A stretch of DNA of 64,000 nt from Siphonodentalium dalli (lineage: Eukaryota > Mollusca > Scaphopoda > Gadilida > Siphonodentaliidae), in the NCBI GenBank assembly GCA_032622095.1, contig CP136065.1, positions 206,252,151 through 206,316,150 on the forward strand, given 5' to 3'. The notes under the pieces are model-generated. The model was not told the DNA's origin and did not search any database. It saw only the letters and a list, made by a program, of their open reading frames with translations. The stretch's first letter is position 1. The number at the start of each line of letters is the position of its first letter. Positions 26,155-62,324 of the stretch are shown piece after piece. The position numbers were made by a program, and so were the translations under genes.

Positions 26155-26181
26155 CATGAGTGTTTTGAAAAAAGTTGCAGT
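26155..26181 (+). CDS. CBR1: CBR1 coding exon 1 (9 codons)
   Basis: ATG in context GCGACCATGA encodes MSVLKKVAV, then donor GTAATT. It joins in phase 0 to VTGSNKGIG of exon 2, restoring the usual SDR start (xxVAVVTGxxxGIG). Found by extending the protein upstream; the 15.3-kb first intron hides it from ORF calling. The supporting evidence is the fit of frame, first beta-strand and promoter position. Confidence 0.82.
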
Positions 26182-41100: not shown

Positions 41101-44100
41101 ATATCATGAAAACATGCTATCCATATCAATACTTTATCTGATTAGTCTCATATTTATACCTATACAAAGAAATGATGGAAACCTTTCCAAGCATCTCCAC
41201 ATTATGTGTTCAGGTATATATTCAGTATAGATCTAGTTAGTAGTGGGTTAAACATCTGTCGATCCAGATATTATAGTGATATTTTTAATGGTGAATATAC
41301 CGCTAGGTCGGTCAGAATGCACTGGTAGACAGAGATCCGAATTACAACAAATTGCTGAAGGCTGTTATATCTAGTATGTAGAACTAGCTCTCACGATTAT
41401 CGGATTTCTTGATTGTTTATAATTTAAGTTGATGAAGGGTGTAATTTCCACACCATCTGAAATATACCATAACAACAAACATTCCAATATCAAAGGTAAC
41501 CTTTCTTTTCAGGTGACCGGATCAAATAAGGGAATAGGCTACGCTTGCATCAAAGCACTATGCAAGGAATTTGATGGTGATGTCTTCCTCACCTGTAAGT
41601 CTTGCTACAGTCATTAATAATCTCGATCAATGTATTCTCTGTATCTGCATGAGTTTGGATATCGAATGTTCCAACTAATGTTAAGAATGTGTTTGACAAA
41701 TCATGAATCGGCCATCAAATCTTGTCATTAGGGTTGAATGGTAAAATTATGAAAGGGGTCATGAGTATAATCTTCAGGTCAGACAGTTCTGATATACAAC
41801 ATTTTCCCAATGCTGAATATCTTTCCCACCTCATTCCTCACCCTTATAACATGCTTTTTAACAACATGTTGTTCAATGAAATTTGACCATATTATCAACA
41901 CAAAGCCTCTTGATTTTAGAGTTATCCATCTTCATCCGCAATTTGGTCCGAGACTGTTGGCTCATCGACTTTTTACTGAGCCACTAATGAGCCTCGATGG
42001 TGAAAAACAATGGTTGTCAATATCAATAGCTAATAACACCGAGCTTTGATAGGTGGGTTCCTCGACTCGAATCAAGTATTTTTTACCCCCAAATCCAAAT
42101 AAATAGTAATTGAGGGGAGCTTAATCAGATTCAAGCCTTGAAATAGGGTGCCTGTCATTTGCAGAATGAGGTCCCCAGAGGATGAATTTAGTGATACTAC
42201 CCCGCATAGTGGGCTAGCATCACCAAATTCACCCTCTGGGAACCTCATTCTGCTGAGTTGTAAGCAGAATGAGGTCCCCAGAGGGTGAATTTGGTGATGC
42301 TAGCCCGCTATGCGGGGTAGAATCACTAAATTCACCCTCTGGGGACCTCATTCTGCAAATGACAGGCACCCTATTTCAAGGCTTAATCAGATTATGCGCC
42401 TTTAAACATTACTGTGGGTATTGTCTGATATAATGAAGCCTTGGTAGTATTTTTAATAAAAATCCATCATGACATTAACTGCTGGTTGAACTAGCCCATT
42501 TACACAAGGTACTGCCATCTTAAAACTGACTTCTACTGTAAATAATGCAGGTCAGTGACTGATAAGGCTTAGCACAGTTATACTACCATAAGAGATCGAT
42601 AAACAATAATAAAAAAAAAAATTCTTCGCAGTTCGGGTTGATAAAATTAGGGGCGGTGGTCTGGATGGGGGGGGGGGGGGGGGGGTGGTGCTGGTTACCA
42701 GAAACATCACTATTTATTTTCAGGGCTTCCAGGTAAGAGTGATTCAAGAAGTGAAGCACTGTACTCTTTTCGTTCTCAGTGTGAGTGTTCATTGCTTCAG
42801 TGAGCATGAACTAATTCTCATTTCTTATTAAAATGTCCAATTATTGCTCGGAAATGCACATTGATATGTCCCCCAACTCAGTACTGATTTTCGCCCATGT
42901 CGGTGTTCGAACCCATGGCAAGTCCAGATTGCGATGATGTTATCCAGAAATGATGCACTGTACTCTTATCGTTCTGATTTTCAGCCAGAAATGAGGAACG
43001 AGGCCAGGCTGCTTTGGCAGATTTGAAGAAGGAAAATATCAGCCCAAAATTTCACCAGCTAGATATTGATGATAAATCCAGTATAGAGCGATTGAGAGAT
43101 TTTCTAAAAAAAAATTATGGTGGACTGGATATTCTTATTAACAATGCTGGTATTGCATATAAGGTTAGTTGATTATCCTATTTCTTATAACTGATCTTGT
43201 TGATATTTGGTATTTGACAATTCTCAACCATGTCTTGATCGAGTTCAAAAACTAGACAAGGCTGCCTACTTTGGGCAGGCTACGGCCCTTAAATTGTTCA
43301 TTTTTACAAATTTTGATCGCGATAGCTCAATAACTGGCGAGGACTCCTCAGGACTGTTTGCTAGGGAATATATGTTGCAGTAATGCCCTAAATAATTGAC
43401 TCCTTAACCACAGCTATATCTCACTGAGAGCTTTCCAATGAATGGCAACAAGCCATATTTCCGACTAAATCCTGAAAAGTTACCCATAATTCTGCTATGG
43501 TTAAGGAGTCGATTATTTAGGGCATTACTATATGTGACCCGCCATATCAAATCCAGTCGTAAGCCGGGATTTTTTTTACCCTGTGCCAATGCATTCTCTT
43601 AGTATATGCGAGTCGACCATAGGTCGCCTCGCATATATAAGAGAATGCATTGGCCTAACAATTTTTTATCATTTTTTTTAAATAAATGTTTCTTACAATT
43701 TTTAGGACATAAAATAAAAAACATCCATTACCCTGCAGGGAGCCCCACACATATATAGAAGCATATAGAAGAGTGTCGTCTGCTCATGTTTGTCTGGGGC
43801 TCTGTATGGGTGAAATTATAAAATTGTTAAAGAATACAAGAAAAAATATTAAAATTGTAAAAAATTGCTAGGCCAATGCATTCTCTTATATATGCGAGGC
43901 GACCTATGGTCGACTCGCATATATAAGAGAATGCATTGGCACAGGGTAAAAAAAAATCCCGACTTACGACTGGATTTGATATGGCGGGTCACATATGGTA
44001 TGTCAGAATGTCAGACTTCACTAAGTTCACCCTCTGGGGACCTCATTATGCTACAGACACAATACATGTATATCCAGACTTGCCTATATCTCTGATGGTC

Positions 44101-47100
44101 TTGTTTTTCCGAAAAATGATACAGCATTTTGTATTGAATATAAGTATTCTATATGAAAATGAAATTCAGCCCTGTTAAAGAAAACATTTGGGACTTTTAT
44201 CAAGCATCGGAATGCAATGTCTGTATATATATACAGTAATGCTCTAATTAATCGACTCCCTAACCGCAGCAGAATTATGGGTAACTTTTCAGGGAGAGCT
44301 TTCCGATGAATGGCAACAAGCCATATTTCTGACTAAATCCTAAAAAGTTACCCATAATTCTGCTGTGGTTAAGAAGTCGATTACTTAGAGCATTACTGTA
44401 GTTCATTCAGGAGCTGGAGCTCTATTTGTGGCTTTAGCATCATTTTGCACTAAATTAGTGAGGGAGCTAGGCAATATTATAGCATTGCAGTTTCTGATTG
44501 GATGGGACACCACTGGGAGATTCCGGGTGTGTCTCTCTATGTTAGCGACATTTGCTGTGTGTTATTAACTTATTAGATTCACTATCTGTGGCTGCATTGT
44601 CTCACCTGTAATATGACATTTGCATGGTTAGCTGTGGTTGGTGGTGTTGCCCTTGTCCCTTGTCCATTTGCAATCTCCATATTGGTTGGACAATGATAAT
44701 GTGTCATAACTCCCTATTGCCGGGGGTAATAATATGTATATTGTGTCTCAGAGCATGTTGGTGGATTAATCGCTATATAGAACTAATTAATAATAATTAC
44801 ATGTATATGCAATTTTTTTATTTCTGTATTCCAGGGGAATTCCCCTGCTCCATTTGCTGAGCAAGCAGAAGTGACTGTCAACACCAATTTCTTCTCAACG
44901 CTTAATGCATGCAACATCTTATTTCCCATTCTTCGACCACATGCGAGGTAATCTACTAGAATGACTGTATTTTGAATATGATCTTATTTTCAGTTCTGTT
45001 ATTCAAACTATAGTGCTAAGTCACAGTGATATGACAATAGATACAAGTACTTAAGATATTCTACAGTTACATTTTCAATGTGATCAGATTTTTCCTGTTA
45101 ACTTGAGTCCAACATTTTGATTTCATGTAATTTATGTACATTAAAGATTCCCTGTCCAATTTGACACCATAAAACCATGGCTAACCTCCACCTGTACATT
45201 TTTTCTGCAAGAAAATATGTCAGACTGCTTTCAATTGAGCCACATGATATGGAACTCAAAGGCCATGCACTTTTACCCCCCCCCCCCCCCCCCCCAATTT
45301 GGTTATTCCAATATGCAGCCCTGGGAATTAGCCTAGGCAATAGGCAATGCCTAGGTAAAAGCAGAGGCAAAATCAGTTTGCCTAGGCAATATAAGTTCAT
45401 TGGGTTACTAAAATTGATTTGTGTCTATCAGAAATAGAACCTCTTTAGCCAAAATGACTTCCTTAAATCACTCTTTACATATATTGTCCTAAAATTGTTT
45501 CCATGGCACTGGGCCATTAACTAGCTAAGGGCACTAGTTTTGGAGATGATTTGTGGAATGTATATATATGATGAGTAGTGGCCTGGAAATGTTCTCCAAA
45601 ATAACTAAGCATTTCAGGTTATTATTGAATCATATTAATTTGAGATGGCAATATTGTTGCAAAATTGCCTAGGTAAAATCTGTTTTTGCCTACGCCAATT
45701 TCTTTCACCTAGGCAAAAATATTGCCTGGCAAATTTTCCTTAATTCCCAGGGCTGCAATATGGAATCCCTATGGGATGCTAGGATGTGAGGGGTATTAAG
45801 AAGAATTTCTTTGGTCATTCCTATATGGAATCCCTATGGGATGCTAGGATGTGAGGGGTATTAAGAATAATTTGTTCTATCTGACAAGTCATTACAAAGA
45901 CTGTACTGCTTAAAGATGTCCTGTCCAATTTGAAACCATAAAACCACCATCTGTATGTGTTATATTCCCAAAAATAATTAGAATGGACCCATGAGTCTAT
46001 TAATAGGAGAGTTTGATTGCCAGATATGGCCTTTCTAAAGAGGAAGAGATTAATTATATACCAAACAAAACTAGGTCAAGGTCACTGACCTTAGGTTACC
46101 ACCCAACCCGGAATTTCTCTAGAGAGAGAGAGTACAAGTACAAGATCCACTCAGTAAACATATCTGATTGCTGATCGTGACAATTCACCTGAAGAGCTTA
46201 ACCCTTTACCCAACAGAACGGCCCTGTGCCAATGCATTCTCTTATATATGCGAGTCGACCATAGGTCGCCTCGCATATATAAGAGAATGCATTGGCTTAA
46301 CACATTAAAAATTATAAAATTGTTAAAGAATGTAAGAAAAAATGGTAAAAAGTGTTAAAAAACAGATTTTTTAGGCCAATGCATTCTCTTATATATGCGA
46401 GGCGACCTATGGTCGACTCGCATATATAAGAGAATGCATTGGCACAGGGCATAACTGTAACTATCACAATGTGGTCAAGGATCCGGTTCCAATGATATCC
46501 ATATTTGTATGGTTCTATTGAGACAGACCGAAGATATTTTAGGCTGTTGAAGCTTTATTTGGCCGGTTTTGGCCGGTTTGTTGGGTAAAGGGTTAACCCA
46601 AGCAAAATCAGTTACACTATATTTTAATACGAAAAATATTGATACACCAACTACCAAATTGCTTTAGTTGCTTTAATGATACTTAACAAGCAATTTATTT
46701 ACGACAATTCATAATGACTTACGCTTTACTAAGACAGTTAGGCTTCCCTTGCTAAACTATAATCTTTTTAAAGAGGAAGATTTGACACATTGTGAATTTA
46801 GTAGCCTAACAAAAATTCCAATGATCGTCTCTTATAAAGAGCGTCCATGATTCCGTCGCCCAAAAGCGGACAATAAATTGCGTTCTCAAATATGAGCATT
46901 TGTGATTTTTGGCGAAATACTTTTGGATGATTTTGTGGATTTGCGCGATGCTTGTGCCATATGAATGATAGCCATTTCAGGTTTTTTTCCCCATTTTATT
47001 TGTGTCTGGTAAGCTGTAAATTAACTAAGGATATTTAGTTAGTTCCCATTTTACTTGTGTCTGGTAAGCTGAAAATTAACTAAGGATATTAGTTAGTGAC

Positions 47101-50100
47101 ATTGCCACCACCTATATACTTAGTCCAAGTCTTCTCGTACTAAAACCAGCTAAGATATTGGGATGGCGAGATGCTGGTATTTAGTCCGAGTTCGCCGCCA
47201 TAGGTTTCTTATAACACGAGTTAAGCGTTAGTGACCCGCTCAAATAAAACCACAATTATATGAAATAAAATACAATTGCGACAATAAACGGATTTTTGAT
47301 CTGAAACCCACATCAGTTGTGAATTGAAAGCGGTAATTTAATGTGAAAAGAGACATTTACCGCAGTGTTGACATATTTTTTAAAGTATGCGAACTCAGTT
47401 GACCTCGCGAACTGTGTTCGGCATTTTCCGGTGAAAATATTCCGTAGATTTTCGACTAACCACGCACATGGCGATGAATTCTCCATTGTAATCGTAATTA
47501 TGTGTGTCAATAAATAAATAAATAAATAGATTAAGTAAACATTGAAGATATGAATGTAATACATTAAATAAATTACGGGAATTACAACCCTCTCACAGTG
47601 TAAACACAACGAGCATTAGAATAAATATGGCGGCTGCCATCTTGTTTGTATCGAAATTCGTCTCCGCCAAAACATACTCTGGACTATGCCGAAGTTCTTC
47701 GGGACACTTCGGCTTTCAGTTAAAACGTAAACAAACATATAAAAAAAGCGATGTTAGTGGCAATCAACCGGAATATTCTATGTGTAATTTAACATGAAAG
47801 TTAGATTATTATACACCATTATGACCATAAGATGTCACTCTTTCCGATGTATATAGCATCATGTATTGATTTGTGAGGTAATTCGAGTAAAATACACCAC
47901 ACATTCCCGCCACAAACCCTGGGCGTAACTCGTGTTATAAGAAGCCTATGGTGGCGAACTCGGACGAAATACCGACATCTCGCCGTCCCAATATCTTAGC
48001 TGGTTTTAGTACGAGAAAACTTGGACTACTATATACTCTGACCACTATCGACAGCGGATGTGGCATCTAACCAATGTGCACATACATTATGACTAAATAA
48101 GGAATTTTAATTAAAGACATATTGTGGACTTGTTTCATTGATTTGTTTGTCAGCAACATAGACAGTAATGTTGGAGGCGAAGTTTGATTAAATGGTTGTT
48201 CCTAGAATAAAATTTTCATTTCTTAAAAAGCCATCTTATTCCGGGGACATGTGGGCTAGCAGCCTTTTATCAATCCTGTCATATAATGGTTGATTTCTGT
48301 TTCAGAGTTGTCCATGTATCTAGTAGAGTGTCACAGATGGCATATCATAAATGTGGTGATGCAGTGAAGGCCAAATACAATAATTCCGACCTGACTATGG
48401 ATTCTCTAATCGGACACATGAATCAATTCATCAGGTGTGTTTTACTATGCAGGGACTGTACTGGCCTGACAGCTAATTTCTGTGGTGATTGTTGTTTTGT
48501 TTCAGAGCTGTCAATGTATCAAGTATTTCGGGACAGATGGCATTTGGTGAATGTGGTGATGCAGTGAAAGCGAAATTCATTAATCATAATCTGACCATGG
48601 ATGTTCTGGTAGGACACATGAATCAGTTTATTATGTGTGTTTTTATACTGTATGTTGGGTGATTCTCCAGGTGTTATACTGACATTCAAGCACATTGTTA
48701 TATTATTATGGAAGTTTTTGCAATGTAGTGTTTTCTATCAAATCTGTTACCCTCATACTACAACCAAAAATTATACCAGCTAGACAAACAAGTTTTTGAA
48801 GTCTGTACAAATAAGTGTGGTGTTGTATTGGACATGATTTTGGACCTCCACAAAGAGTTGTGAAATCACTCCTTAAAAACACTCTGGTATTCAACCTGGG
48901 TGATTGGAACCAGGTAATTTTACTCTGGTTAAATTCATCTATTGAATGGTCACCATATTATACACACACATGTAGACCATGTATTTTTACTCAAGTAAAA
49001 TGTTCCCACCCATGTATTACACCAAAGAGTATTTTACCTCGATATTAGAGTAAATTACCACGGTAGTACTGATGTGTGCTTTCATTTGAGATATCAGATT
49101 GGAGGCTTTATGAATCACACATATGATACTTATTTATAAAAATATTCTTATCCCATTATGTTAACTTTTGAGTACTGGCTATAGTAGTTTTTCCACTGAT
49201 TAATGGAACGAAATATGATTTTATTCTCACAAAAGAGACTAAAAAACACCTCAGCTGAGAAATGTGCTATTGTAAAATAGAGTTATTGCTCATATCCATG
49301 TAAAATTACTCCAGTAAAGCCAGGTAAACCAGAGTATATCATTGTTAACCTGACTTTACCATCATTTACTTGGAATTTACAAGGGTATGCCCATTCTAAA
49401 TGGTATTTATATATGTGGCTTTTACCAGAGTATATCATTGTAAACCTGACTTAGCATGCTTTTACTTGGAATTTACAAAGGTATGTCATTTTTACATGGC
49501 TTTTACCAGAGTATATCATGAAACCTGACGTTAACCAACTTACCAGAGTAGAGCCTGTAAACCATGGTTTACCGGGCTATTACCAAAGTGTTTTTTTATG
49601 AGGGATGAGCGCTTTCAATGGTGGGTACAGACAGAGGTGTTATTCTTATATTGTTCTAGACTTGTCCTTGTTTTTTATTAGGCTTGCCACGATTATTTGA
49701 TTAATTGACTAACCTTCGACAGGTGTGGTAGTCAACGATTATTTACTTTCGTCGACTAATCGCCCAAGGGGAGGTGTGGGTATGGTTGTGTATTTAATCA
49801 GTACTATGCACAAATGCCATGCATAGAAGTAAAAGTTAGCAGTGTATGTAGCGCAATTTACTGCCCGAAAGGCTATTCTGTCGCCACTTCTGAAGCGGCT
49901 TCCTTTGATGTCGCAGCCAAAGTTTGGCGGTCATCTTCAAAGAGTTTGGTGTGTGATATGTTCTCACAGTCAGTGGTGGGCCAGCGGCATCCTTTGCCTT
50001 TATGTCGTGTTACGGCCTTGTCATTGTTTATAAATTATGTTTAACTATGAATTTATGTTCCTATGGATTGGTAATTAGCGATCATTATATCCAAGATGGA

Positions 50101-53100
50101 CGATATGTATTAATTGGACTGTATCTATATTTCATTTTTCAAATTTCATACTGTAAAATGTTCACCATTATTGACAAAGTTCGCGGAACATAGAATGTTC
50201 AAAGTTACTGGACAGTTAATCAGTAACAAGTTTGTGTCATCACTTATTAGTGCTACATGCATTACATTCTCCAACGTGGTAACATATATACCACCCCCCC
50301 CCCCCCCCCCCCCGCTACCGCGCTGCAAAATGCGATGCGATGCGGCGCTACACACACTTTGAATAACAAAACTAAGTACAACAGACACCTTAGCCAGCGA
50401 AATAAAATTAAGTGCTATATATATGTCAGGTGAGGCAATCGATACATAATGGGATTTCTGCAAAACTAACTATAGTCCATACCCTTGTAAATTCCAAGTA
50501 AAGGCATGATGTGCCCCACTTACATTACATTAAAGTGGGTACACCATGCCTTTACTTGCATGGAATTTACATGGGTATGTCTTTTTGTCCCCCGAAAAAT
50601 AAATTTTCAGGGGACTATAAAAACAGGCTCTGTCGTACCGTCCGTCCATTGTACCTTCCGTCCGTCCGTCACACTTTTGAGTACCTTCATGGTGTAATCA
50701 ACTCCTCCTACAGTTTTCATCCTAGAGATTTGAAACTTCAGAATATTGTTGCCCATATATTGAAGATGTGCAACATGTATATAGATGACGGAAAAGTTAT
50801 TTTTTGACAAAGTTATTGACCCTTTTCAACTTAGAAAATTTCAACATTTTTTATAATTTTCTGTATGAGGGTACCTTCATGGTGTAATCAACTCCTCCTA
50901 CAGTTTTTATCGTAGATATTTGATACTTCAGAGTATTGTTACCCACATATTGGAGATGTGCAACATGTAAATAGATGACAGAATTTAAAAAAAAAATTTT
51001 ACGGAGTTATTAACCCTTTTCGATTTAGAAAATTTCAACATTTTTTAAAATTTCTTTAGCAAAGCGGCATCGACTTGCCACATTTTCGGGGGACACTGTG
51101 GTCGGCTGACCTTTTATTTACATGGGTGTACATGGCTCTTATTAGAAGTACATGTACAAGTTTAAGCACAGGTCTACCTATCTGAATATCATAACATTGG
51201 AGCCCACATGGATCTAAATGTATGCATAAAGCACATGGTTGCTATAGCTCTACTGCCATGCTATTTGTATGTTTGGTTTGTAGGCAATCATAGAATTCTG
51301 ATTAAATCAGCCTTGGATATAATAATTAACACCTTGTTTTTAACAGAAAAAGTGCAGATTACTTATTTTGATAAGAGTTAGAAACAAAATTGATGTAAAT
51401 AAAAAAAATTACACCAACCTCCTGACTAAGATGCAAGACCTCGGTACTCCATCCATAATCTATTCTGATTTATTTGTTGCACACAGTGAAGCAAAAGCTG
51501 GTACTGCAGAAAAAAATGGATGGGCAACAACGAGCTATGGCATGTCAAAAGTTGGTGTTACATGCATGACCATTATACAAGGCAAAGATATATGTAAAGA
51601 CTCAAGAGAAGACATCTTAATCAACTGTGTATGTATAATGTGTATGGACAAACTGTATCACTTATAGGCTCATGCTTTATTTACTGTCTATGTATGATGT
51701 GTATGGACAAACTGTGTCACCCAGTCTCATGCTTTATTAACTGTGTATGTATGATGTGTATGGACAAACTGTGTCACACAGTCTCATGCTTTATAAACTG
51801 TGTATGCATGATGTCCAGGGACAAATTATCATGCTTTATTACTTCTTAATGTAGGGCTTGTAATTTGGGGCGAAGGGAAAAGTTATGTTGACCTGTTATC
51901 AGGTCCTCTCAAGTTCTCATGGTGATCCAATCACAGAAGTGAGTGCCCCATAATTATAACAGGATTATGGTTTCTACCCAGGACCACATAAGCTGTAGCA
52001 CCTATCCTGCATTGGGGTCATTACCTAGAACTTAGCAGTTTACTCAAAAATATAGGTTTTTAGCTCACTCCTCATCCGTATGTCTGTCTAGCCATATCCA
52101 TCCATCTGTCCATCCATCCATTCTTGAATCATCTTCTCTGGAACCATAAGACTGAATGTGTTATATTTGGTGCGGATGTTCGATGGGTGGCTCACATTCA
52201 GATTTCTTCAAATGAGGTCACTGGGTCAAATAGTTGCGAAGACAGGGCCATAACTCTTTCCCTCCATAGTAATTCTTAAAACGACTTCTTCTCCAAAATA
52301 CCATCGGGCCGATTGTGTTCATATTTAGAAGAATCCTTAGGTGACTGGGGTCAGATTTGTCGGAGCCAGGGACATAATTCCGAGAATTTTTTTTTTTTAG
52401 ATTTAATTCCTTGCTCAATTTAATCAAAATAAAAAAATTCAACAACAAAAAATTAAATTCAACAAAAATTAATTTAGATTTAAAAAAATACCCCTTGCTC
52501 AATTCTTTTTTGTTTTATGAAAATTTAATTTTTAATTTTAATATTTAAATTTTTAAAATCTATGTTAAAATCCAGGGTACACGGACTCATCTCACTAAAT
52601 TTAGTTTTAATTTGTCCAGGGGTCTATTACCCTTGCCAATTGAAGGGTGAAGTAAGTACATGTACCCCTATTTCAAATGTTGTGCTTTCACACTCCTAAT
52701 GCCACAATATTATTTTTGAGAAGTAATCTCTTTCACTAACAGTATAAAGCTTGTCTGCCTGTCATTCTCTCTAATGTCTCTTGTGTATGAAATTAGTTCT
52801 TATATTATCTGACAGTATTTGATAAACATATAACAGAAACGGCTGGATAATGTTTGTTTGTTTCATTCGTTTCAATTTAAATTAGATTAATTCCCATGTG
52901 GTGTCGTCTATGCAGTTGTACGGGCAGGTGTTACAATATTATGTTTATATAGGCTATTAACTCCTTTTCATATGTGATAATGATGTGTCTTATTTATTAT
53001 GCTGATGATTTCAAGTAACAATCATCAGAGTTGCCATGTTGATAACCCTTCCGTAATTGTGTAACTTATTTAAAGGAAAATGAACTCACTTCAACTTCTA

Positions 53101-56100
53101 TAATATAACCTTTGTAAGATCAATGGATCTCATAGATTGTGATTTACATTTGGTTCAAATAGGGACAGAGATAGGAGATTTAACATACCTGCAGTCATCC
53201 TATCTATGCTATGAATTCATGTTTGGTACTTATATAGATTCCTATACCGGTATTACATGTAATAAATTTTATAAATTTTGGCATTATCAGTAAGGTTTTG
53301 ATAAATTTCCAACAGTTGGAGATCTTGAAGTACAGTTGTAATTTAGTTTGGTCCAGTTGGGAGGTAATGGGCAATGATCTATGGGGGAGGGGAGGTTGTG
53401 CATTAGGAATATCAAGGTGGACACCCCCATATCCCCTCCCACCGTTCAACGAAGACCCCCTACCTGTATCCCTGTCAAGAACTACTTGTTTTAAAGAGAT
53501 TTGACAAGTACTGACTATTGTGGTCTTCAGAGTCCCAATCTTCTCTGTCATTACAGTCTGGTGAGCGACACCAGAATCATTGACTGTCTTGTTTACCTGA
53601 AATTCTTTCTCAAACTCATGCTGGACTGTTGTTTTGAAGGTGCAATCTGAACTCTGTTGATCCAAGTAAAGTGTGCGTAAATTTTGTCTGGCTATTGTTT
53701 TTGGATATGTGCACAATGAGGCGACCATGATGGGCGAGTCCATTGTCGCCGTGGTGGGCGAGTCCATTGTCGCCGTGGTGGGCGAGTCCATTGTTCCCGT
53801 GGTTGGAATGCTCACAATTGTCCATAATTTTAGTGTCAATGTTGTTTATATAGTGTTACTTGTCTATCATATATACATTCCAGTGGTGTATAAATTGGTT
53901 ACCACCTTCAGTCGGAGTCATTCGTTGAAGGAAATGACCTGCTTCGGATTGGCAACAACCTCAACCTCCCACTTCAGGGGGCTCGATTGTACCGTCTGCT
54001 CTCAGCAGGCCATTCCCTTCCATGAATGACTCCGACCTCATGTGTGAACCAATACATATACCACTACACACCATCTACCATTGAGCCTTATGGCATATAA
54101 ATCATTCATTATTGTTAATCCTCTTTAACGTTTTATTACATTTGGTGGCACATTGTTTGAGAGTGCACTTCTGTGAGTACCTTTTGTTACCCATTAAGCT
54201 GTATCACCTAATCAATTAGCATATTATCAATACTTATCTGGTTTGAGGGATATCCAATGTGCCGTTCAGATCGTAGAATGGTCATTTCAATAAGACATTA
54301 TATTTTTGCATGCACATTAACACTTCCATGATTGAGCTTCCTGAAATTTGGGTAAAACCCTGTGCCAATGCATTCTCTTATATATGTGAGTCTTCCATAG
54401 GGAGTCTCAAATATATAAAAGAATACATTGGCCTAACAATATTTATTTTGACCTTGTTAGCCAGTGCATTCTCTAATATATGTGAGGCTCCCTATGGGAG
54501 ACTTGCATATATAATGACACACTTATCACACTTGTTTGTCATGTCACAAGGTATTATATCGAATAGCGCATGGGTCCTTGTAACCTCACATCACAGAAAA
54601 CTTGTGCGACACATCAGACCCTGTCCACACACCAGTATCTCCTTATCCACTACACATATAAATCAGATGGTGTTATTTTACAGTGCTGTCCAGGCTATGT
54701 ATCTACCGATATGAGCAGCTTTAAAGGTCACAAGACTGTTGAAGAAGGTAGGTACCGTAATCATTTTATTTCTTATCTCAACCAGTGTTGGCGCTGTCGG
54801 TAGCCAAATTAGCCAATGGCTAATCTTTTTCGAATTTGGCTAATAAAAATTTCATTTGGCTAAACTTTTGGCTAAACTTTTTTTGAACCCAAATGGAGAC
54901 TGATAGCATGGAGCCAGAAAGCTAATTAATAAAAGCGCTCAATAGATCGACATTCAAGACGAAGTTAGGTGACGAAAGCATTTCATTATTGTCGTACTTA
55001 TGAAATATCGTACAAAGGGAAACCCGATCGACAACTCTATCAACCAAGCGATCATAAAGTGATATGCAATCATCTTTAGTTTTCACAAGACGGACAAACA
55101 AAGACGCATGGACATTAAACCGACCGTGGTTGAATTATGACAATGTGAAGAAAGCAATGTTTTGTAAAGTGCATTGACGCCGGTATACAAGCAATTTGTT
55201 CGTAACATGTGCAGGCTGTTTTAATCTGGAGAAAGATTACGTCACTCTGCACGAAGCAGCAAAAGGTCATTATTAATTTTTACATTTAATCCCCTAATCC
55301 CCCAGTCAGCCCATTGTCTGTCTGGTCACTCACGGCGCGCCTGTACAATGCATGTTTATGATGACGTGTATTTATGACGGTCAATGTTTATGAGCACCAA
55401 GTGTAAGACAATAGCTTAATCAGCCAAATGTGAATCACGACAGATATTTTGTGGCTATTTGTCGTCAATACCGATACAGTCAAAATAATATGCATGCTTT
55501 TATGACAGATTGTAATTTGATGATGGCGTAACAATATTAAGTTATTAGTTTCCAGATGTCACTTAGATATTTTCGCAAGGATAACTATTTAATGATTTAA
55601 AAATAGATATTGATATAAAAACAAAACAAAATGACATTAAGAAGGACAATACCGGGTTACCCCCCCCCCCCCCCCCAAATCACTCTTTCACATAAAGATT
55701 AATAAATTTTTAATAAATGATATATATAAAAATACTTGTAGTTCATCAAAATTATTTAAACTATTGTGTATTTTACCTTTGTCTGTTAGATTTTACGTTT
55801 TAGTCATTAATTGTGAACCGACCAGAAAACGATGATTTAATTTGGCCAAAGTTGTTTTTAATTTGGCCAAAAAACATTTGGCTAAAGTTTTTTTGATTTG
55901 GCTAATAAAATTTTCATTTGGCTAAACTTTTGGCTAAAGTTTTTTTCGGTCCAGCGCGAACACTGATCTCAACTTGATAAAGTTTGAGCTATTGCCATGG
56001 GTTGTCGTCCGTCCATGCATACGCTGGGTATATTAAGTGGTATTACTTTTAAGTGGTTATCACTTAATTTGGACACTCCTTGTGTGTTCAGAAAGACATA

Positions 56101-62100: not shown

Positions 62101-62324
62101 GATTCAAAGTAATGAAGTAACTTCTATCAGTTTGAAATGGTTAATTCATTATCTTTTAGGAAAAATTTGCTGTTGTGTTGCCATAGTGATGAATACGGTT
62201 ATTTCTTACAGGTGCTGATTCCCCCGTTTATTTGGCTATGCTGCCAGAGAACACAAAAGGTTTACAAGGGAGCTTTGTTGCAGAGAGAAAGATCCTAGAC
62301 ACTTGGGCAAAAGCTTCTTTTTAG
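26155..62324 (+). CDS. CBR1: Carbonyl reductase, CBR1-type SDR (whole gene, 8 exon positions)
   Basis: Joins 26155-26181, 41513-41594, 42985-43163, 44835-44947, 48306-48434 (or 48506-48634), 51487-51628, 54684-54747 and 62212-62324: 849 nt, 282 residues (human CBR1 is 277). It is a cytosolic NADPH-dependent reductase of the SDR21C type, acting on carbonyl compounds. Visible: TGSNKGIG cofactor motif (11-18); NNAG (89-92); catalytic Asn114, Ser140, Tyr194 and Lys198 at the same positions as in human CBR1; FHQLDIDD (59-66); and CCPGYVSTDM (225-234). All borders are GT-AG and all phases agree. The exon with Ser140 is duplicated. The exact substrate cannot be told, and CBR1 versus CBR3 orthology is not meaningful outside vertebrates. 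Confidence 0.93.
26609..27474. mobile_element. TATGGGAGGC-end element with 6-bp duplication and GCGCTTAAGCGC palindromes
   Basis: The flanks TGGAAT occur at 26609-26614 and 27469-27474. The inverted ends begin TATGGGAGGCCCTTTTCACA. Subterminal clusters of ATTTGCGCTTAAGCGCAAAT lie at both ends (about 26650-26775 and 27340-27440). The interior is a ~210-bp direct duplication (CACCATATGA...GAAATGGTATA...CTGTGCAGGA). A 6-bp duplication is unusual; IS3EU or Dada are possible superfamilies, but no transposase is present. Confidence 0.8.
27520..27780. mobile_element. TATGGGAGGC-end element, short form with GCGCTGAAGCGC palindromes
   Basis: GATGAC flanks at 27520-27525 and 27775-27780. Ends TATGGGAGGCCAAATTCACA and its complement. 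The interior is almost entirely ATTGCGCTGAAGCGCAAT units. It shares ends with the 26615-27468 element but carries a different palindrome. Confidence 0.85.
27814..27839. mobile_element. End fragment of a third TATGGGAGG element
   Basis: TATGGGAGGTCAAATTCACA followed by TTTAAT, where the 2.8-kb hAT inserted. An unpaired right end of the same family is at about 40530-40573 (AAATGTGAAAAGGGTCTCCC). The flanks of these two ends do not match, so they are probably not one element. Confidence 0.6.
28915..29070 (-). pseudogene. hAT transposase C-terminal remnant (dimerisation region)
   Basis: The minus strand reads RKHSDQYERALFSFMDEVPT in one frame, then shifts by one to YLQEPCVPSDISPLTYWRLQ. The motif 'YLxxPxxPxxxxPLxYW' is typical of the hAT C-terminal dimerisation domain. 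The frameshift near 28980-28990 and the flanking stops show that it is dead. Confidence 0.75.
29649..29759 (-). pseudogene. hAT transposase BED zinc-finger remnant
   Basis: The minus-strand frame encodes FTLPNDISDKFKATCKHCPT, then ISGSAKATSNFITHLK. The C-x2-C plus ATSNxxxHLK layout is a BED-type finger. A donor-like GTATTA follows HLK, suggesting the original coding exon ended here. Confidence 0.75.
30649..31257 (-). pseudogene. LINE ORF2 C-terminal fragment
   Basis: The minus-strand frame at 31257-30892 encodes LDELELTSLQERRQEIRLTQ, then FHKIVKGMVPALDVHDFL, ending YKHSFFVKTTIDWNQL. This is the familiar tail of non-LTR retrotransposon polymerase proteins. The part to the left (30649-30890) would be its 3' untranslated end and has ACTAGCTGCATGATGTGCCC. 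Catalytic domains are absent. Confidence 0.75.
31258..31579. other. CBR1 intron 1, repeat-like, no gene
   Basis: Contains GGTCAAGGACACGGTCGCAC and ATCGGTTGAGCAGATTTCGA phrases that resemble the tails of the satellite that follows. No conserved coding. Confidence 0.4.
31580..34567. repeat. GC-rich ~367-bp tandem satellite, about 5 units, plus a divergent insert
   Basis: GACTAGCCGATGAGCC starts near 31582, 32821, 33187, 33558 and 33923. Three consecutive steps are 365-371 bp. Each unit has an internal ~120-bp duplication (TCAAGTCGATAGCTCCACCC, then TCTGCGCATGCGCGAAGC) and ends GACATACAGACAGACAAACA. The piece at 32132-32820 is a related but different tail (AAGGTCAAGGTCACCTCGCG). The many open frames here result from GC content. 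Confidence 0.85.
35026..35465. mobile_element. TTAA element with CCCTTTCAGTGCC ends and one palindrome
   Basis: TTAA at 35026-35029 and 35462-35465, with ends CCCTTTCAGTGCCAGG and GGCACTGAAAGGG. It holds a single 68-bp palindrome (35345-35413) of the CCAATGCATTCTCTTATA family. Another GGCACTGAAAGAGTTAA end lies inside, at about 35257-35273, so it may be two elements joined. Confidence 0.7.
35470..36596. other. CBR1 intron 1, nothing recognised
   Basis: Unique-looking AT-rich sequence with several GTAACGTCAGTCAC or near copies (about 35980, 36150, 36180), repeated later at about 37690-38090. These 12-14-mers recur but no element ends are seen. Confidence 0.45.
36780..37180. repeat. 36-bp minisatellite, about 11 units
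   Basis: AGCAACTTAATAGTGAGGTG recurs every 36 bp. Units alternate between GACCAGTGTC and GACCACTGTC over part of the array, giving a 72-bp higher order. Two minus-strand frames stay open (12-residue repeats TDTGHLTIKLLY and TLVTSLSSCYIL) because 36 is a multiple of three. In CBR1 intron 1. Confidence 0.9.
37181..38485. other. CBR1 intron 1, no gene recognised
   Basis: AT-rich. At 37315-37380 is a fragment similar to the CCCTTTCAGTGCC family (CTAAACCTAAAAAATAAGCC, then GAAAGAGTTAA). Scattered GTAACGTCAGTCAC copies. Otherwise nothing. Confidence 0.45.
38486..40470. repeat. Retroposon-like dispersed repeat (ACTAGCTGGGGTACCCGGC ... ACAAACGAACAAACAG)
   Basis: The start ACTAGCTGGGGTACCCGGC is followed by several phrases of the form GCCCTTTAAGACATCTGAGGTCAA and CAGCTCCGATGGTCCAGCCG, then a GCAAACAAACGAACAAACAG end. 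It is interrupted by a hAT-like element (38894-39994). No coding sequence. Confidence 0.6.
38894..39994. mobile_element. hAT-like element, TAGAGGTGCCACGATTA termini
   Basis: The inverted ends are TAGAGGTGCCACGATTA and TAATCGTGGCACCTCTA, with subterminal TAATCGATAATCGG. The flanks (TAAGAAAG and TTGATAAG) do not match, so the duplication is lost or the ends were rearranged. The ends resemble those at 21080 and 49679. No transposase seen. Confidence 0.7.
40574..41512. other. End of CBR1 intron 1, no gene
   Basis: AT-rich sequence up to the CTTTTCAG acceptor of exon 2. Loosely repeated CACACTCTTCACCTG / CACATCCCTCACCTG phrases are visible at about 40685, 40828 and 41040, suggesting an old ~150-200-bp tandem repeat. 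Confidence 0.45.
41513..41594 (+). CDS. CBR1: CBR1 coding exon 2 (NADPH-binding Rossmann start)
   Basis: The acceptor CTTTTCAG ends at 41512 and the donor GTAAGT follows 41594. 27 codons plus T: VTGSNKGIGYACIKALCKEF, then DGDVFLT. This holds the TGxxxGIG cofactor loop and the second beta-strand of an SDR. The last base joins CC of exon 3 to make Ser37. Confidence 0.95.
42133..42384. repeat. 252-bp near-perfect palindrome in CBR1 intron 2
   Basis: AAGCCTTGAAATAGGGTGCC (42133) pairs with GGCACCCTATTTCAAGGCTT (to 42384). The arms carry GCAGAATGAGGTCCCCAGAG and CTAGCCCGC and meet near 42258. It sits inside a diverged copy of the 3529-3986 repeat (which resumes at 42385 with ATCAGATTATGCGCCTTTAA). 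A piece of the arm recurs at about 44020-44050. Confidence 0.9.
42385..42984. other. CBR1 intron 2, 3' part
   Basis: Holds a G-run (42667-42685) and a repeated phrase GCACTGTACTCTT at about 42755 and 42955, the second leading into the exon 3 acceptor. No gene. Confidence 0.5.
42985..43163 (+). CDS. CBR1: CBR1 coding exon 3
   Basis: The acceptor GATTTTCAG ends at 42984 and the donor GTTAGT follows. 179 nt encode RNEERGQAALADLKKENISP, then KFHQLDIDD, then LRDFLKKNYGGLDILINNAG and IAYK. It contains the adenine-pocket LDIDD and the NNAG motif. Ends in phase 0. Confidence 0.96.
43378..43529. mobile_element. CAGTAATGCYCTAA hairpin MITE, copy 1
   Basis: CAGTAATGCCCTAAATAATT at the left and ATTATTTAGGGCATTACT at the right. 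The core ATGAATGGCAACAAGCCATA and TAAATCCTGAAAAGTTACCC is shared with copies at 44234, 60358, 62372 and 62793. CAGT ends with TA targets fit a Tc1/mariner- or pogo-type MITE. Confidence 0.8.
43531..43995. mobile_element. TGTGACCCGCCATATCAAAT element with twin palindromes
   Basis: TA flanks and long inverted ends beginning TGTGACCCGCCATATCAAAT (43533) and its complement (to 43993). They lead straight into the CCAATGCATTCTCTTATA twin palindromes (43587-43655 and 43872-43940). Here the palindromes have completely different outer ends from the TTAA copies. Confidence 0.8.
44232..44400. mobile_element. CAGTAATGCYCTAA hairpin MITE, copy 2
   Basis: The element at 44234-44398 is flanked by TA, with ends CAGTAATGCTCTAATTAATC and its near complement. 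It contains GATGAATGGCAACAAGCCAT. In CBR1 intron 3. Confidence 0.85.
44401..44834. other. CBR1 intron 3, 3' part, nothing recognised
   Basis: Unique-looking sequence up to the TTCTGTATTCCAG acceptor of exon 4. Confidence 0.5.
44835..44947 (+). CDS. CBR1: CBR1 coding exon 4
   Basis: The acceptor TATTCCAG ends at 44834 and the donor GTAATC follows. 113 nt encode GNSPAPFAEQAEVTVNTNFF, then STLNACNILFPILRPHA, plus AG of a split Arg codon. Asn114 of the SDR tetrad is in VNTNFF. The Arg codon is completed by an A present at the start of both exon 5 copies. Confidence 0.95.
45309..45762. mobile_element. Small hAT-like MITE, CAGCCCTGGGAATTA termini
   Basis: The element at 45316-45755 has ends CAGCCCTGGGAATTA and TAATTCCCAGGGCTG, with CAATATG on both sides (7 bp). 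Inside, GCCTAGGCAA-like repeats occur near both ends. A C-run (45276-45295) lies just outside. Confidence 0.8.
45758..45885. repeat. ~65-bp direct duplication
   Basis: ATATGGAATCCCTATGGGAT, then GCTAGGATGTGAGGGGTATT, occur at 45758 and again at about 45823. Confidence 0.85.
46198..46596. mobile_element. Twin-palindrome TTAA MITE, copy 4
   Basis: TTAA at 46198-46201 and 46593-46596, CCCTTTACCCAACA ends, two palindromes and the CTCAATAGAACCATAC unique part. Same orientation as copy 3 and nearly identical to it. In CBR1 intron 4. Confidence 0.88.
46597..47112. other. CBR1 intron 4, no gene
   Basis: Contains a ~58-bp direct duplication at about 46985-47098 (CCCATTTTACTTGTGTCTGG, then TAAGCTG and AATTAACTAAGGATAT). 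Otherwise unique. Confidence 0.5.
47113..48036. mobile_element. ~0.92-kb element with ~115-bp inverted ends
   Basis: TACTTAGTCCAAGTCTTCTC at the left and GAGAAAACTTGGACTACTAT at the right, with arms continuing through ACCAGCTAAGATATTGGGA and AACACGAGTTA. The interior is unique and has AATATGGCGGCTGCCATCTT at about 47623. No transposase and no clear target duplication. It ends about 270 bp before exon 5a. Confidence 0.75.
48306..48434 (+). CDS. CBR1: CBR1 coding exon 5a (catalytic Ser, version a)
   Basis: The acceptor TTTCTGTTTCAG ends at 48305 and the donor AG|GTGTGT follows 48434. 129 nt encode (R)VVHVSSRVSQMAYHKCGDAV, then KAKYNNSDLTMDSLIGHMNQ and FI plus a split codon that becomes Ser with exon 6. 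It carries the SDR catalytic serine (Ser140 in VSS). A second exon of identical length and phase lies 71 nt downstream. Relative to the usual VNVSSI consensus this version has His137 and Arg141. Confidence 0.88.
48506..48634 (+). CDS. CBR1: CBR1 coding exon 5b (catalytic Ser, version b)
   Basis: The acceptor TTGTTTTGTTTCAG ends at 48505 and the donor AT|GTGTGT follows 48634. 129 nt encode (R)AVNVSSISGQMAFGECGDAV, then KAKFINHNLTMDVLVGHMNQ and FI, with the split codon becoming Ile. 28 of 42 residues match exon 5a. There is no stop, and the catalytic serine is kept. VNVSSIS is nearer the family consensus than 5a. The donor lacks the usual G at -1. If both copies were included the frame would still hold (325 residues), but two copies of this segment would not fit an SDR fold. 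Confidence 0.85.
48635..49249. other. CBR1 intron after exon 5b, nothing recognised
   Basis: Unique-looking AT-rich sequence. No coding motif. Confidence 0.5.
49250..49570. repeat. ~110-bp degenerate tandem repeat
   Basis: CCAGAGTATATCATTGTTAA recurs at about 49330, 49425 and 49508. TTTACTTGGAATTTACAAGG recurs at about 49367 and 49460. Related phrases (TTTACTTGCATGGAATTTAC) return at about 50480-50580, on the far side of the hAT piece, suggesting the repeat was interrupted by it. Confidence 0.7.
49679..50420. mobile_element. hAT-like fragment related to 21080-22014
   Basis: TAGGCTTGCCACGATTA at 49679, then ACTAACCTTCGACAGGTGTG and GTGGGTATGGTTGTGTA, collinear with the element at 21080. No matching right end was found. 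A C-run (50294-50313) lies inside. The right limit is approximate. Confidence 0.65.
50581..51110. repeat. CCCCCGAAAA-edged dispersed repeat with two ~195-bp units
   Basis: GTCCCCCGAAAAATAAATTT at the left and ATTTTCGGGGGACAC at the right act as inverted edges. Inside, GTACCTTCATGGTGTAATCA occurs at about 50679 and 50872, each followed by ACTCCTCCTACAGTTTT. A CCGTCCGTCC run is present. Same family as 4677-5440 and 11590-12020. Confidence 0.7.
51487..51628 (+). CDS. CBR1: CBR1 coding exon 6 (catalytic Tyr-Lys)
   Basis: The acceptor TTGCACACAG ends at 51486 and the donor GTATGT follows 51628. The first T completes the split codon from 5a (Ser) or 5b (Ile). It encodes EAKAGTAEKNGWATTSYGMS, then KVGVTCMTIIQGKDI, ending EDILINC. 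The YxxxK pair (Tyr194, Lys198) is intact. The open frame runs upstream to 51368 without family similarity, so the start was set by splice fit. Confidence 0.93.
51623..51845. repeat. ~58-bp tandem repeat that begins at the exon 6 donor site
   Basis: AACTGTGTATGTATAATGTG at 51623 spans the exon 6/intron border. Near copies follow at about 51682, 51739 and 51797, with CAAACTGTGTCACxCAGTCTCATGCTTTAT between them. So the exon end plus 5' splice site is repeated about four times. Confidence 0.9.
51846..52029. other. CBR1 intron 6, nothing recognised
   Basis: Short unique stretch between two repeats. Confidence 0.4.
52030..52400. repeat. Dispersed 'TTTTAGCTCAC...GGCCATAACTC' repeat
   Basis: TTTTTAGCTCACTCCTCATC, then (CCAT)n-type CCATCCATCTGTCCATCCAT, AAATGAGGTCACTGGGTCAA, AGGGCCATAACTCT and ACTTCTTCTCCAAAATACC. 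This style is common in mollusc genomes (recollection, not a search). The AT-rich tail runs to about 52560. Confidence 0.6.
52560..53200. other. CBR1 intron 6, nothing recognised
   Basis: AT-rich, no coding motif and no clear repeat. Confidence 0.45.
53204..53839 (-). other. 211-codon open frame, unrecognised, antisense in CBR1 intron 6
   Basis: The longest open frame in the window. It begins near three 8-residue repeats (TMDSPTTA) encoded by a 24-bp DNA repeat at about 53737-53795 (GTGGTGGGCGAGTCCATTGT). I recognise no domain and no splice context. The overlapping plus-strand frame is also open. It may be an old element or chance. Confidence 0.2.
54317..54515. mobile_element. Truncated twin-palindrome TTAA element
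   Basis: TTAACACTTCCATGATTGAG, then palindromes at about 54363-54431 and 54461-54513 of the diverged GAGGCTCCCTATGGGAG type. The right end is missing. It lies 170 bp upstream of exon 7. Confidence 0.65.
54684..54747 (+). CDS. CBR1: CBR1 coding exon 7
   Basis: The acceptor GTTATTTTACAG ends at 54683 and the donor GTAGGT follows 54747. 64 nt encode CCPGYVSTDMSSFKGHKTVE plus E and a split Gly codon. Joined to exon 6 it makes NC|CCPGYVSTDM, where the family usually has NACCPGWV. This is the segment after the active-site helix that helps close the substrate pocket. Confidence 0.94.
54775..55973. mobile_element. Non-autonomous hAT, CAGTGTTGGCGCTG termini, perfect 8-bp duplication
   Basis: ATCTCAAC at 54775-54782 and 55966-55973. 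The element at 54783-55965 starts CAGTGTTGGCGCTG and ends CAGCGCGAACACTG. Subterminal regions are built of TTTGGCTAAACTTTTGGCTA repeats on both sides. A C-run (55660-55676) lies inside. It inserted 35 nt past the exon 7 donor. Confidence 0.9.
55974..57099. other. CBR1 intron 7, repeat fragments, no gene
   Basis: At 55975-56010 is AAAGTTTGAGCTATTGCCAT followed by GTCGTCCGTCC, an inverse copy of the module at 8500-8560. At 56640-56775 is a diverged copy of the 3529-3986 repeat. The rest is AT-rich and unrecognised. Confidence 0.5.
57100..57880. repeat. ~155-bp satellite, 4-5 units, inverse of the EMC7 intron 3 array
   Basis: GCCATCTTGGATTT or close forms at about 57224, 57350, 57505, 57673 and 57828. 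Each unit has CTACAGGTCACATC and ATCATCACCAAACTT. It is the reverse complement of the AAATCCAAGATGGC units at 6805-8465, more diverged. Confidence 0.85.
57881..58688. other. CBR1 intron 7, nothing recognised
   Basis: Includes a CT-rich run (CTCTCTAACTCTCTCTCTCT near 58280). No gene. Confidence 0.5.
58689..58900. mobile_element. Twin-palindrome TTAA element, CCCTTTCGTGGCGGGAGC end
   Basis: TTAACCCTTTCGTGGCGGG at 58689, then two diverged palindromes (58733-58802, 58829-58893) with GCTCCCTATGGGAG centres. The right end is decayed. A third outer-end type for the same palindromes. Confidence 0.65.
58901..59558. other. CBR1 intron 7, nothing recognised
   Basis: Begins with a short run of ACCGGGAATT repeats (58913-59000). 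No gene. Confidence 0.5.
59559..60263. mobile_element. TTAA-flanked 697-bp element with ~105-bp inverted ends
   Basis: TTAA at 59559-59562 and 60260-60263. The ends AGGGGTGCTGTGCACTAAAT and ATTTAGTGCACAGTACCCCT continue as paired arms for about 105 bp (to ATGAATGAGTGCA). Inside is a perfect 90-bp hairpin (60042-60131). Kolobok- or piggyBac-type by target choice; no transposase. Confidence 0.85.
60042..60131. repeat. Perfect 44-bp-arm hairpin
   Basis: The left arm starts GATACAAACAACATGGTAAT and the right arm ends ATTACCATGTTGTTTGTATC, with a 2-bp centre (CC). I find no mismatch across the 44-bp arms. Confidence 0.95.
60356..60477. mobile_element. CAGTAATGCYCTAA hairpin MITE, copy 3 (short)
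   Basis: The element at 60358-60475 is flanked by TA and starts CAGTAAATGCTCTAATTAAT. It contains ATGAATGGCAACAAGCCATA once, without the second half found in longer copies. A short direct repeat (ACTGTGACAGAGGTGA, AGTAAGAAAGATA) flanks it on both sides. Confidence 0.8.
60690..61450. repeat. ~145-bp tandem repeat with GTCTGTC microsatellite
   Basis: Starts at a GTCCGTCCGTATGTCTGTCT tract, then four units with CTCAAACATTTTTTATCTGA, CCAAATTTGGTATGTGAGTT, ACAGATCGAGTTCGAATATG and GAGTTATGGCCCTTTTTCGA. In CBR1 intron 7. Confidence 0.85.
61451..62211. other. End of CBR1 intron 7, nothing recognised
   Basis: AT-rich sequence to the TTTCTTACAG acceptor of exon 8. A TTAACCCTTCTATATTG phrase at about 61872 recalls the 420-667 family. 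Confidence 0.5.
62212..62324 (+). CDS. CBR1: CBR1 coding exon 8 (C-terminus, stop)
   Basis: The acceptor TTTCTTACAG ends at 62211. GT completes the Gly codon; it encodes ADSPVYLAMLPENTKGLQGS, then FVAERKILDTWAKASF, and ends TAG at 62322-62324. The 'A-x-T/S-PVYLAxLP ... G-x-FVxExK ... W' pattern is the usual CBR1 C-terminus, with 5 extra residues after the Trp. Confidence 0.95.

What the first reader, a model, noticed from the sequence alone, without database searches (positions are those of the whole stretch)
48306..48634. Duplicated catalytic exon in the carbonyl reductase gene, a likely mutually exclusive pair
Seen: two 129-nt exons exactly 200 bp apart, each with its own acceptor (TTTCAG) and donor (GTGTGT), the same phase, no stops, and 28 of 42 residues shared. 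Both keep the SDR catalytic serine (Ser140). They differ beside it (His137/Arg141 in 5a, Asn137/Ile141 in 5b) and at the exon 5/6 junction (Ser or Ile). Known: in human CBR1 the residues next to this serine line the substrate pocket. Inferred: choosing one copy would give two reductases with different substrate or stereo preference. The 71-nt intron between them could hinder joining 5a to 5b.
Basis: partly seen in the sequence, partly recalled or inferred. Interest (0 to 1): 0.85.

Follow-up and report, generated by a model that had tools for sequence, protein, structure and literature searches.

The report
Swappable catalytic exon in carbonyl reductase
An animal's carbonyl reductase gene carries two side-by-side versions of the exon that builds part of its active site, and a neighbouring sister gene carries the same pair, so one gene can probably make two enzymes with different substrate pockets; the splicing itself has not been observed.

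Summary
In detail: two 129-nt exons, 200 bp start to start, AG/GT borders, same phase, open, 28 of 42 residues identical, Ser140 in both. I completed the gene: nine exons, 26156-62324, give a 282-aa CBR1-type reductase with either copy. A tandem sister gene beginning about 5.5 kb beyond the window carries the same intact pair, so the exon duplication (dS about 0.7) predates the gene duplication (dS about 0.07). Neutral simulations keep the pair this similar in 0.7-0.8% of runs. The intron between the copies is 71 nt here and 46 nt in the sister gene; its likeliest branch point lies 42 and 17 nt from the 5a donor, under the ~50-nt limit. Exon choice changes residue 142, a reported specificity determinant of CBR1/CBR3: Ser in 5b, Val or Gly in 5a. 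The three 5a residue differences between the genes are at 142, 143 and 146; 5b has none. Most likely a mutually exclusive pair enforced by steric hindrance that alters the substrate pocket. Splicing and activity are untested. New member of a known kind.

The parts
26156..26182 (+). exon 1, MSVLKKVAV, phase 0, donor GTG|gtaatt
   Evidence: found by a motif scan; the sister gene has MSGLKKVAV in the same setting, in an 88% identical stretch
41513..41594 (+). exon 2, cofactor motif TGSNKGIG
42985..43163 (+). exon 3, contains NNAG
44835..44947 (+). exon 4, contains Asn114
48306..48434 (+). exon 5a, residues 135-176 plus split codons at both ends; VHVSSRVS with Ser140, Arg141, Val142
48435..48505 (+). 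71-nt intron between 5a and 5b; candidate branch point CTAAT with its A at +42, 29 nt before the acceptor
   Evidence: consensus prediction only (other yUnAy matches at +10 and +35)
48506..48634 (+). exon 5b, residues 135-176 plus split codons at both ends; VNVSSISG with Ser140, Ile141, Ser142; donor TAT|gtgtgt
51487..51628 (+). exon 6, Tyr194 and Lys198 (SYGMSK)
54684..54747 (+). exon 7, CCPGYVSTDM (Tyr229 where human CBR1 has Trp)
62212..62324 (+). exon 8 with the stop codon

Best explanation
This is a CBR1-type carbonyl reductase gene whose catalytic-serine exon was duplicated in tandem. The two copies are most likely spliced mutually exclusively and give two active reductases that differ in the substrate pocket. 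Shown by sequence: the pair, a complete gene model, the same pair in a tandem sister gene, moderate constraint since the duplication, and the very short inter-exon intron. Inferred: the branch point used for 5b lies so close to the 5a donor (42 nt here, 17 nt in the sister gene) that 5a cannot be joined to 5b, so exon 4 joins one or the other and either joins exon 6. Inferred: exon choice sets residues 137, 141-143 and 147-149 near Ser140 and so changes substrate preference. 5b looks like the conserved form; 5a is the form whose pocket residues differ between the two genes.
For: Exact pair and borders. 282-aa models with 5a or 5b and no internal stop. Best solved relative is CBR1 (1wma) for both isoforms, 300 bits with 5b and 300.2 with 5a. 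Sister gene about 32.5 kb downstream with the same pair, open frames and GT-AG borders. 5a against 5b: dS 0.66-0.75 and dN/dS 0.30-0.37 in 4 of 4 comparisons; the rest of the coding sequence between the genes (last codons of exon 8 left out) dS 0.065-0.071. Neutral simulation: 14 or fewer residue differences in 0.77% of 23,845 runs; if only 5a drifts, 0.67% of 12,011. Between the genes 5b has 0 of 42 and 5a 3 of 42 residue changes. CTAAT at +42 and +17, 29 nt from the acceptor in both genes; a steric threshold of about 50 nt, and OGDH branch points at 25-41 nt, are in passages of PMC7969005. Position 141/142 is named as a specificity determinant of CBR1/CBR3 in the abstract and passages of PMC2741203.
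Against: No RNA evidence. Base rate: the human survey started from 6,541 candidates and confirmed 1,399 with at least one junction read per exon, 855 with at least three; many others lacked data (passages of PMC5740500). 129 nt is a multiple of three, so joint inclusion and skipping stay in frame. The 32 differences between 5a and 5b are nearly flat over codon positions (9, 11, 12). Between the genes 5a has 3 nonsynonymous and 1 synonymous change, dN/dS 0.78, and is not significantly more conserved than nearby intron (4/129 against 36/626, p 0.16; 5b 2/129, p 0.028). 5b donors match the recalled consensus at 6 of 9 positions in both genes, 5a donors at 8 of 9. M141Q or M141A alone lowered CBR1 activity only modestly. 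No base-pairing signal around the pair. Branch points are predicted by consensus only.
Confidence: 0.7

Rival explanations
1. Alternative but not exclusive: both exons are sometimes included together, giving a 325-aa protein with a 43-residue insert that carries a second copy of the serine segment.
For: Joint inclusion keeps the frame in both genes. A 71-nt intron is not in itself impossible to splice (general knowledge).
Against: The intron is only 46 nt in the sister gene, with the likeliest branch point at +17. A duplicated strand and helix inside the Rossmann core is unlikely to fold (inference).
Confidence: 0.12
2. One copy is a relic that is rarely or never spliced in.
For: Weaker 5b donor matches in both genes; 5a between the genes not significantly more conserved than intron, dN/dS 0.78 on four changes.
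Against: Open frames and GT-AG borders in 4 of 4 exon copies; neutral drift of 5a from 5b gives 14 or fewer residue changes with no stop in 0.35% of 12,011 runs; 5b unchanged between the genes in 42 of 42 residues.
Confidence: 0.1
3. Work split between genes: after the gene duplication one gene uses mainly 5a and the other mainly 5b, so the choice is made by gene rather than by splicing. (Not exclusive of the main reading for the time before the gene duplication.)
For: 5b donors differ (TAT|gtgtgt here, TAG|gtttgt in the sister gene) and the inter-exon intron is 25 nt shorter in the sister gene.
Against: All four exon copies are intact; both 5b donors match the recalled consensus equally, 6 of 9.
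Confidence: 0.15
4. The second gene is an assembly artefact (an uncollapsed allele), so it is not independent evidence; the exon pair itself would still stand.
For: Same order and strand and neighbouring position; similarity runs on about 2.8 kb past the stop codon.
Against: 5.75% mismatch in intron near the pair, gaps left out; 16 residue differences up to position 255 with 5a, one beside catalytic Tyr194; intron 1 about 15.3 kb against 3.0 kb. I would expect less between alleles (inference).
Confidence: 0.1

Closest known systems
coq-2 exons 6a/6e (helminths, annelids, molluscs)
   Same: Mutually exclusive exons that replace part of an enzyme's core, reported to switch substrate use (abstract and passages of PMC7434440). 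A matching exon pair is in this genome.
   Different: Another enzyme family; the exons are 3.4 kb apart here, so no short-intron block; the exons were deleted and tested in C. elegans, nothing was tested here.
OGDH exons 4a/4b
   Same: Mutually exclusive exons separated by a short intron whose branch points lie close to the upstream donor (passages of PMC7969005).
   Different: Sets calcium sensitivity, not the substrate pocket; branch points mapped there, predicted here.
Oyster alternative oxidase exon 10
   Same: Tandem duplicated exon in a mollusc enzyme, with changes beside functional sites in one copy and the other copy conserved (abstract and passages of PMC5589949).
   Different: Terminal exons with an alternative acceptor, not internal mutually exclusive exons.
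Human CBR1/CBR3 gene pair
   Same: Two carbonyl reductases whose specificity depends partly on the residue at 141/142 (abstract and passages of PMC2741203).
   Different: Separate genes rather than alternative exons; the major determinant Trp229/Pro230 lies in what is here the shared exon 7.

Membership tests
Mutually exclusive exons (criteria from passages of PMC5740500) | neighbouring internal exons with sequence similarity and similar length | tested here: met
   129 nt each, 28 of 42 residues identical
Mutually exclusive exons (criteria from passages of PMC5740500) | same reading frame, no in-frame stop, GT-AG borders | tested here: met
   in both genes
Mutually exclusive exons (criteria from passages of PMC5740500) | junction reads from each exon bridging the other | not testable with these tools
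   no RNA data
Mutually exclusive exons (criteria from passages of PMC5740500) | no reads joining the two exons, unless the join shifts the frame | not testable with these tools
   no RNA data; the join would stay in frame
Steric-hindrance type of exclusive splicing | branch point less than about 50 nt from the upstream donor | tested here: inconclusive
   likeliest consensus match at +42 and +17, the other matches at +10 and +35; not mapped by experiment
Competing RNA-structure type | complementary elements flanking the exons | tested here: inconclusive
   no signal: best ungapped stems reached by 10-52 of 60 shuffles in six comparisons; the region folds worse than its shuffles, z +1.88; only two genes and at most 300 nt of flank compared
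Frame-shift (nonsense decay) type | joint inclusion breaks the frame | tested here: not met
   129 = 3 x 43; joint inclusion gives an open 325-aa frame
U2/U12 incompatibility type | minor-class splice sites at one exon | not tested
   no U12 model was run; the donors of exons 1-7 listed begin GT and the acceptors of exons 2-8 end AG
CBR1-type monomeric carbonyl reductase (SDR) | cofactor motif, Asn-Ser-Tyr-Lys tetrad, full-length match | tested here: met
   TGSNKGIG; N114, S140, Y194, K198; 1wma E about 1e-88 over residues 7-273
CBR1-type monomeric carbonyl reductase (SDR) | NADPH-dependent carbonyl reduction | not testable with these tools
   no assay

The most novel reading that the evidence does not exclude
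Two tandem genes times two exons give four reductases, in which 5b keeps a conserved pocket while 5a is a fast-changing specificity cassette (142/143/146: Val-Ser-Ala in one gene, Gly-Thr-Thr in the other), and exclusion is enforced physically by an intron too short to splice, down to 46 nt.
Probability: 0.35. Interest if true: 0.68.

Novelty: new member of a known kind. Interest (0 to 1): 0.52.

Why it matters
Enzymes that change substrate by swapping an exon inside the active site are few in what I read; coq-2 is the clearest animal case I met. Carbonyl reductases act on xenobiotics, steroids and eicosanoids (start of the abstract of PMC2741203), and the swapped exon holds the catalytic serine and a reported specificity residue. 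With two genes and two exons in one animal, the claim can be tested with ordinary RNA data and four recombinant proteins.

Tried and rejected
Competing RNA structure: no stem stood out from shuffles, and all 100 shuffles fold at least as well as the region. A third exon copy: tblastn of both exons over 104 kb at E 1 or less found the pair in each gene and otherwise two chance-level matches to 5a, E 0.56. Further CBR1-type genes: a genome search with the whole protein gave 26 matches from 30 candidates, 16 of them in these two genes. The next best, on C8, has two matching pieces but no exon-5-like match in the 15,001 bases read; I take it for another short-chain dehydrogenase. Nine weaker matches (E 0.0076 and above) were not followed, and the tool scores only its best candidates, so further genes are not excluded. 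A single-exon relative to root 5a and 5b was therefore not found. Against human CBR1, 5a matches 15 (this gene) and 13 (sister gene) of 42 residues and 5b 17 of 42, so which copy is ancestral is not settled. Pfam gave nothing for the exon 4-5a-6 fragment and a sub-threshold adh_short for the exon 4-5b-6 fragment. An all-against-all comparison of open frames at the COQ2 locus was swamped by repeats. Naming the animal by its chromosome lengths in print failed. A search on shortest introns in molluscs gave a listing that I did not follow.

Literature, all in the held open-access library and judged by titles and starts of abstracts: carbonyl reductase with mutually exclusive and exon (12 papers), general terms on mutually exclusive exons and short-chain dehydrogenases (20 of 333 shown), carbonyl reductase with alternative splicing and mollusc (1 paper), tandem duplicated exons with reductase, enzyme and oyster (10 of 22 shown), carbonyl reductase with exon duplication (none). 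I saw no paper on a duplicated CBR exon. In the main text of a survey of human tandem duplicated exon substitutions (PMC9741552) 'CBR' does not occur. Tandem duplicated exons as such are common: passages of PMC9013439 cite about 10% of animal genes.

Full report
What is there. Two 129-nt exons, 48306-48434 (5a) and 48506-48634 (5b), start 200 bp apart and are each bordered by TTTCAG and GTGTGT. They share 97 of 129 nt and 28 of 42 residues; the repeated stretch extends only about 10 nt outside the exons on either side.

The gene. I found the other exons by motif and by comparison with a sister gene: 26156-26182, 41513-41594, 42985-43163, 44835-44947, 51487-51628, 54684-54747 and 62212-62324. 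With 5a or 5b the product is 282 aa without internal stops; with both it is 325 aa and with neither 239 aa, all in frame. The best solved relatives are carbonyl reductase 1 (1wma), a carbonyl reductase/20beta-hydroxysteroid dehydrogenase (1n5d) and carbonyl reductase 3 (2hrb); 1wma scores 300 bits with the 5b isoform and 300.2 with the 5a isoform. PMC2741203 uses 1wma and 2hrb as the human enzymes. The tetrad Asn114, Ser140, Tyr194, Lys198 is present.

The sister gene. A genome search found a second gene on the same strand about 32.5 kb downstream, which I fetched. It has the same nine exons, a 283-aa product and the same 5a/5b pair. Intron near the pair differs at 36 of 626 aligned bases, 5.75%, gaps left out; the larger matching blocks over the genes are about 85-94% identical. 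Synonymous divergence between the genes is 0.065-0.071 outside exon 5 (last codons of exon 8 left out), against 0.66-0.75 between 5a and 5b. If rates are alike, the exon duplication is roughly ten times older than the gene duplication, and both genes kept both exons. An uncollapsed allele is unlikely but not excluded.

Constraint. dN/dS between 5a and 5b is 0.30-0.37 in four comparisons. In neutral simulations matched for nucleotide divergence, 14 or fewer residue differences occurred in 0.77% of 23,845 runs, or 0.67% of 12,011 when only 5a drifted. Against this, the differences are nearly flat over codon positions (9, 11, 12), 5a between the genes has dN/dS 0.78 on four changes, and it is not significantly more conserved than nearby intron (p 0.16; 5b p 0.028). 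Constraint on the pair is moderate, and clearer for 5b.

How exclusion could work. The inter-exon intron is 71 nt here and 46 nt in the sister gene, 25 nt shorter. In both, CTAAT lies 29 nt before the acceptor, putting the branch adenosine at +42 and +17 from the 5a donor. The other matches to yUnAy are at +10 in both genes and +35 here. All are under the threshold of about 50 nt cited for simultaneous binding at donor and branch point (passages of PMC7969005). Frame shift cannot be the mechanism, and I saw no base-pairing signal. Steric hindrance is the best-supported mechanism; the branch points are predicted, not mapped.

What the choice changes. Exon 5 covers residues 135-176. In this gene the 14 differences are at 135, 137, 141, 142, 143, 147, 148, 149, 158, 159, 161, 162, 167 and 169; junction residue 177 also differs, in this gene only. 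Residue 142 aligns with Met141 of CBR1 and Gln142 of CBR3, which PMC2741203 names among the determinants of specificity, although single changes there had modest effects on CBR1. It is Ser in 5b, Val in 5a of this gene and Gly in 5a of the sister gene. The three 5a differences between the genes are V142G, S143T and A146T. Three random changes among 42 would span five residues or fewer in 2.0% of cases (post hoc, small numbers). 5b shows none. This suggests that 5a is the variable pocket and 5b the conserved one.

Context. The same genome holds an exon pair like that of COQ2: a 6e-like exon (C1:89071070-89071201) and a 6a-like exon (C1:89074604-89074738), 44% identical, each with AG/GT borders. 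The locus was found with the Pfam UbiA family; the name COQ2 and the 6a/6e labels are from recalled sequence features, not from an alignment with published exons. That pair is reported in helminths, annelids and molluscs that make rhodoquinone (passages of PMC7434440), which points to such an animal; the species was not identified. It is the closest functional parallel: exon choice changing an enzyme's substrate.

Verdict. The pair is real, old, retained in two genes and built as a mutually exclusive pair would be. Splicing and activity remain to be shown. It is a new member of a known kind, of moderate interest, and readily testable.

Noticed in passing
G000 C1:89071070-89071201 and 89074604-89074738 (L019/L020): COQ2-like gene with 6e-like and 6a-like exons 3.4 kb apart, resembling the rhodoquinone/ubiquinone switch exons; suggests a rhodoquinone-making lophotrochozoan.
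   Followed up: partly
window 51616-51825: A 57-bp minisatellite overlaps the donor of exon 6, so a donor-like GTATGT recurs downstream into intron 6; the array has about 3.6 copies, and shifted matches at the same place in the sister gene suggest the same array there.
   Followed up: no
window 47112-48045: Inverted-repeat element in intron 4 whose ends mirror each other (seen by eye); no sister-gene match was listed over this stretch.
   Followed up: no
window 46219-46446: Nested palindromes containing TGCATTCTCTTATATATGCGAG (by eye); the same words appear beside the COQ2-like exon, so probably a dispersed repeat family.
   Followed up: no
window 6872-8471, 10847-11470, 31624-34218, 36789-37181: Long tandem arrays: 164 bp x 9.9, 63 bp x 9.9 (96%), arrays of 122 bp and 363 bp, and 36 bp x 10.9.
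   Followed up: no
residues 92 (exon 3) and 193 (exon 6) of both genes: Ser193 here is Gly in the sister gene, next to catalytic Tyr194, and Gly92 of NNAG is Ala there. The two genes may differ in activity apart from exon 5.
   Followed up: no
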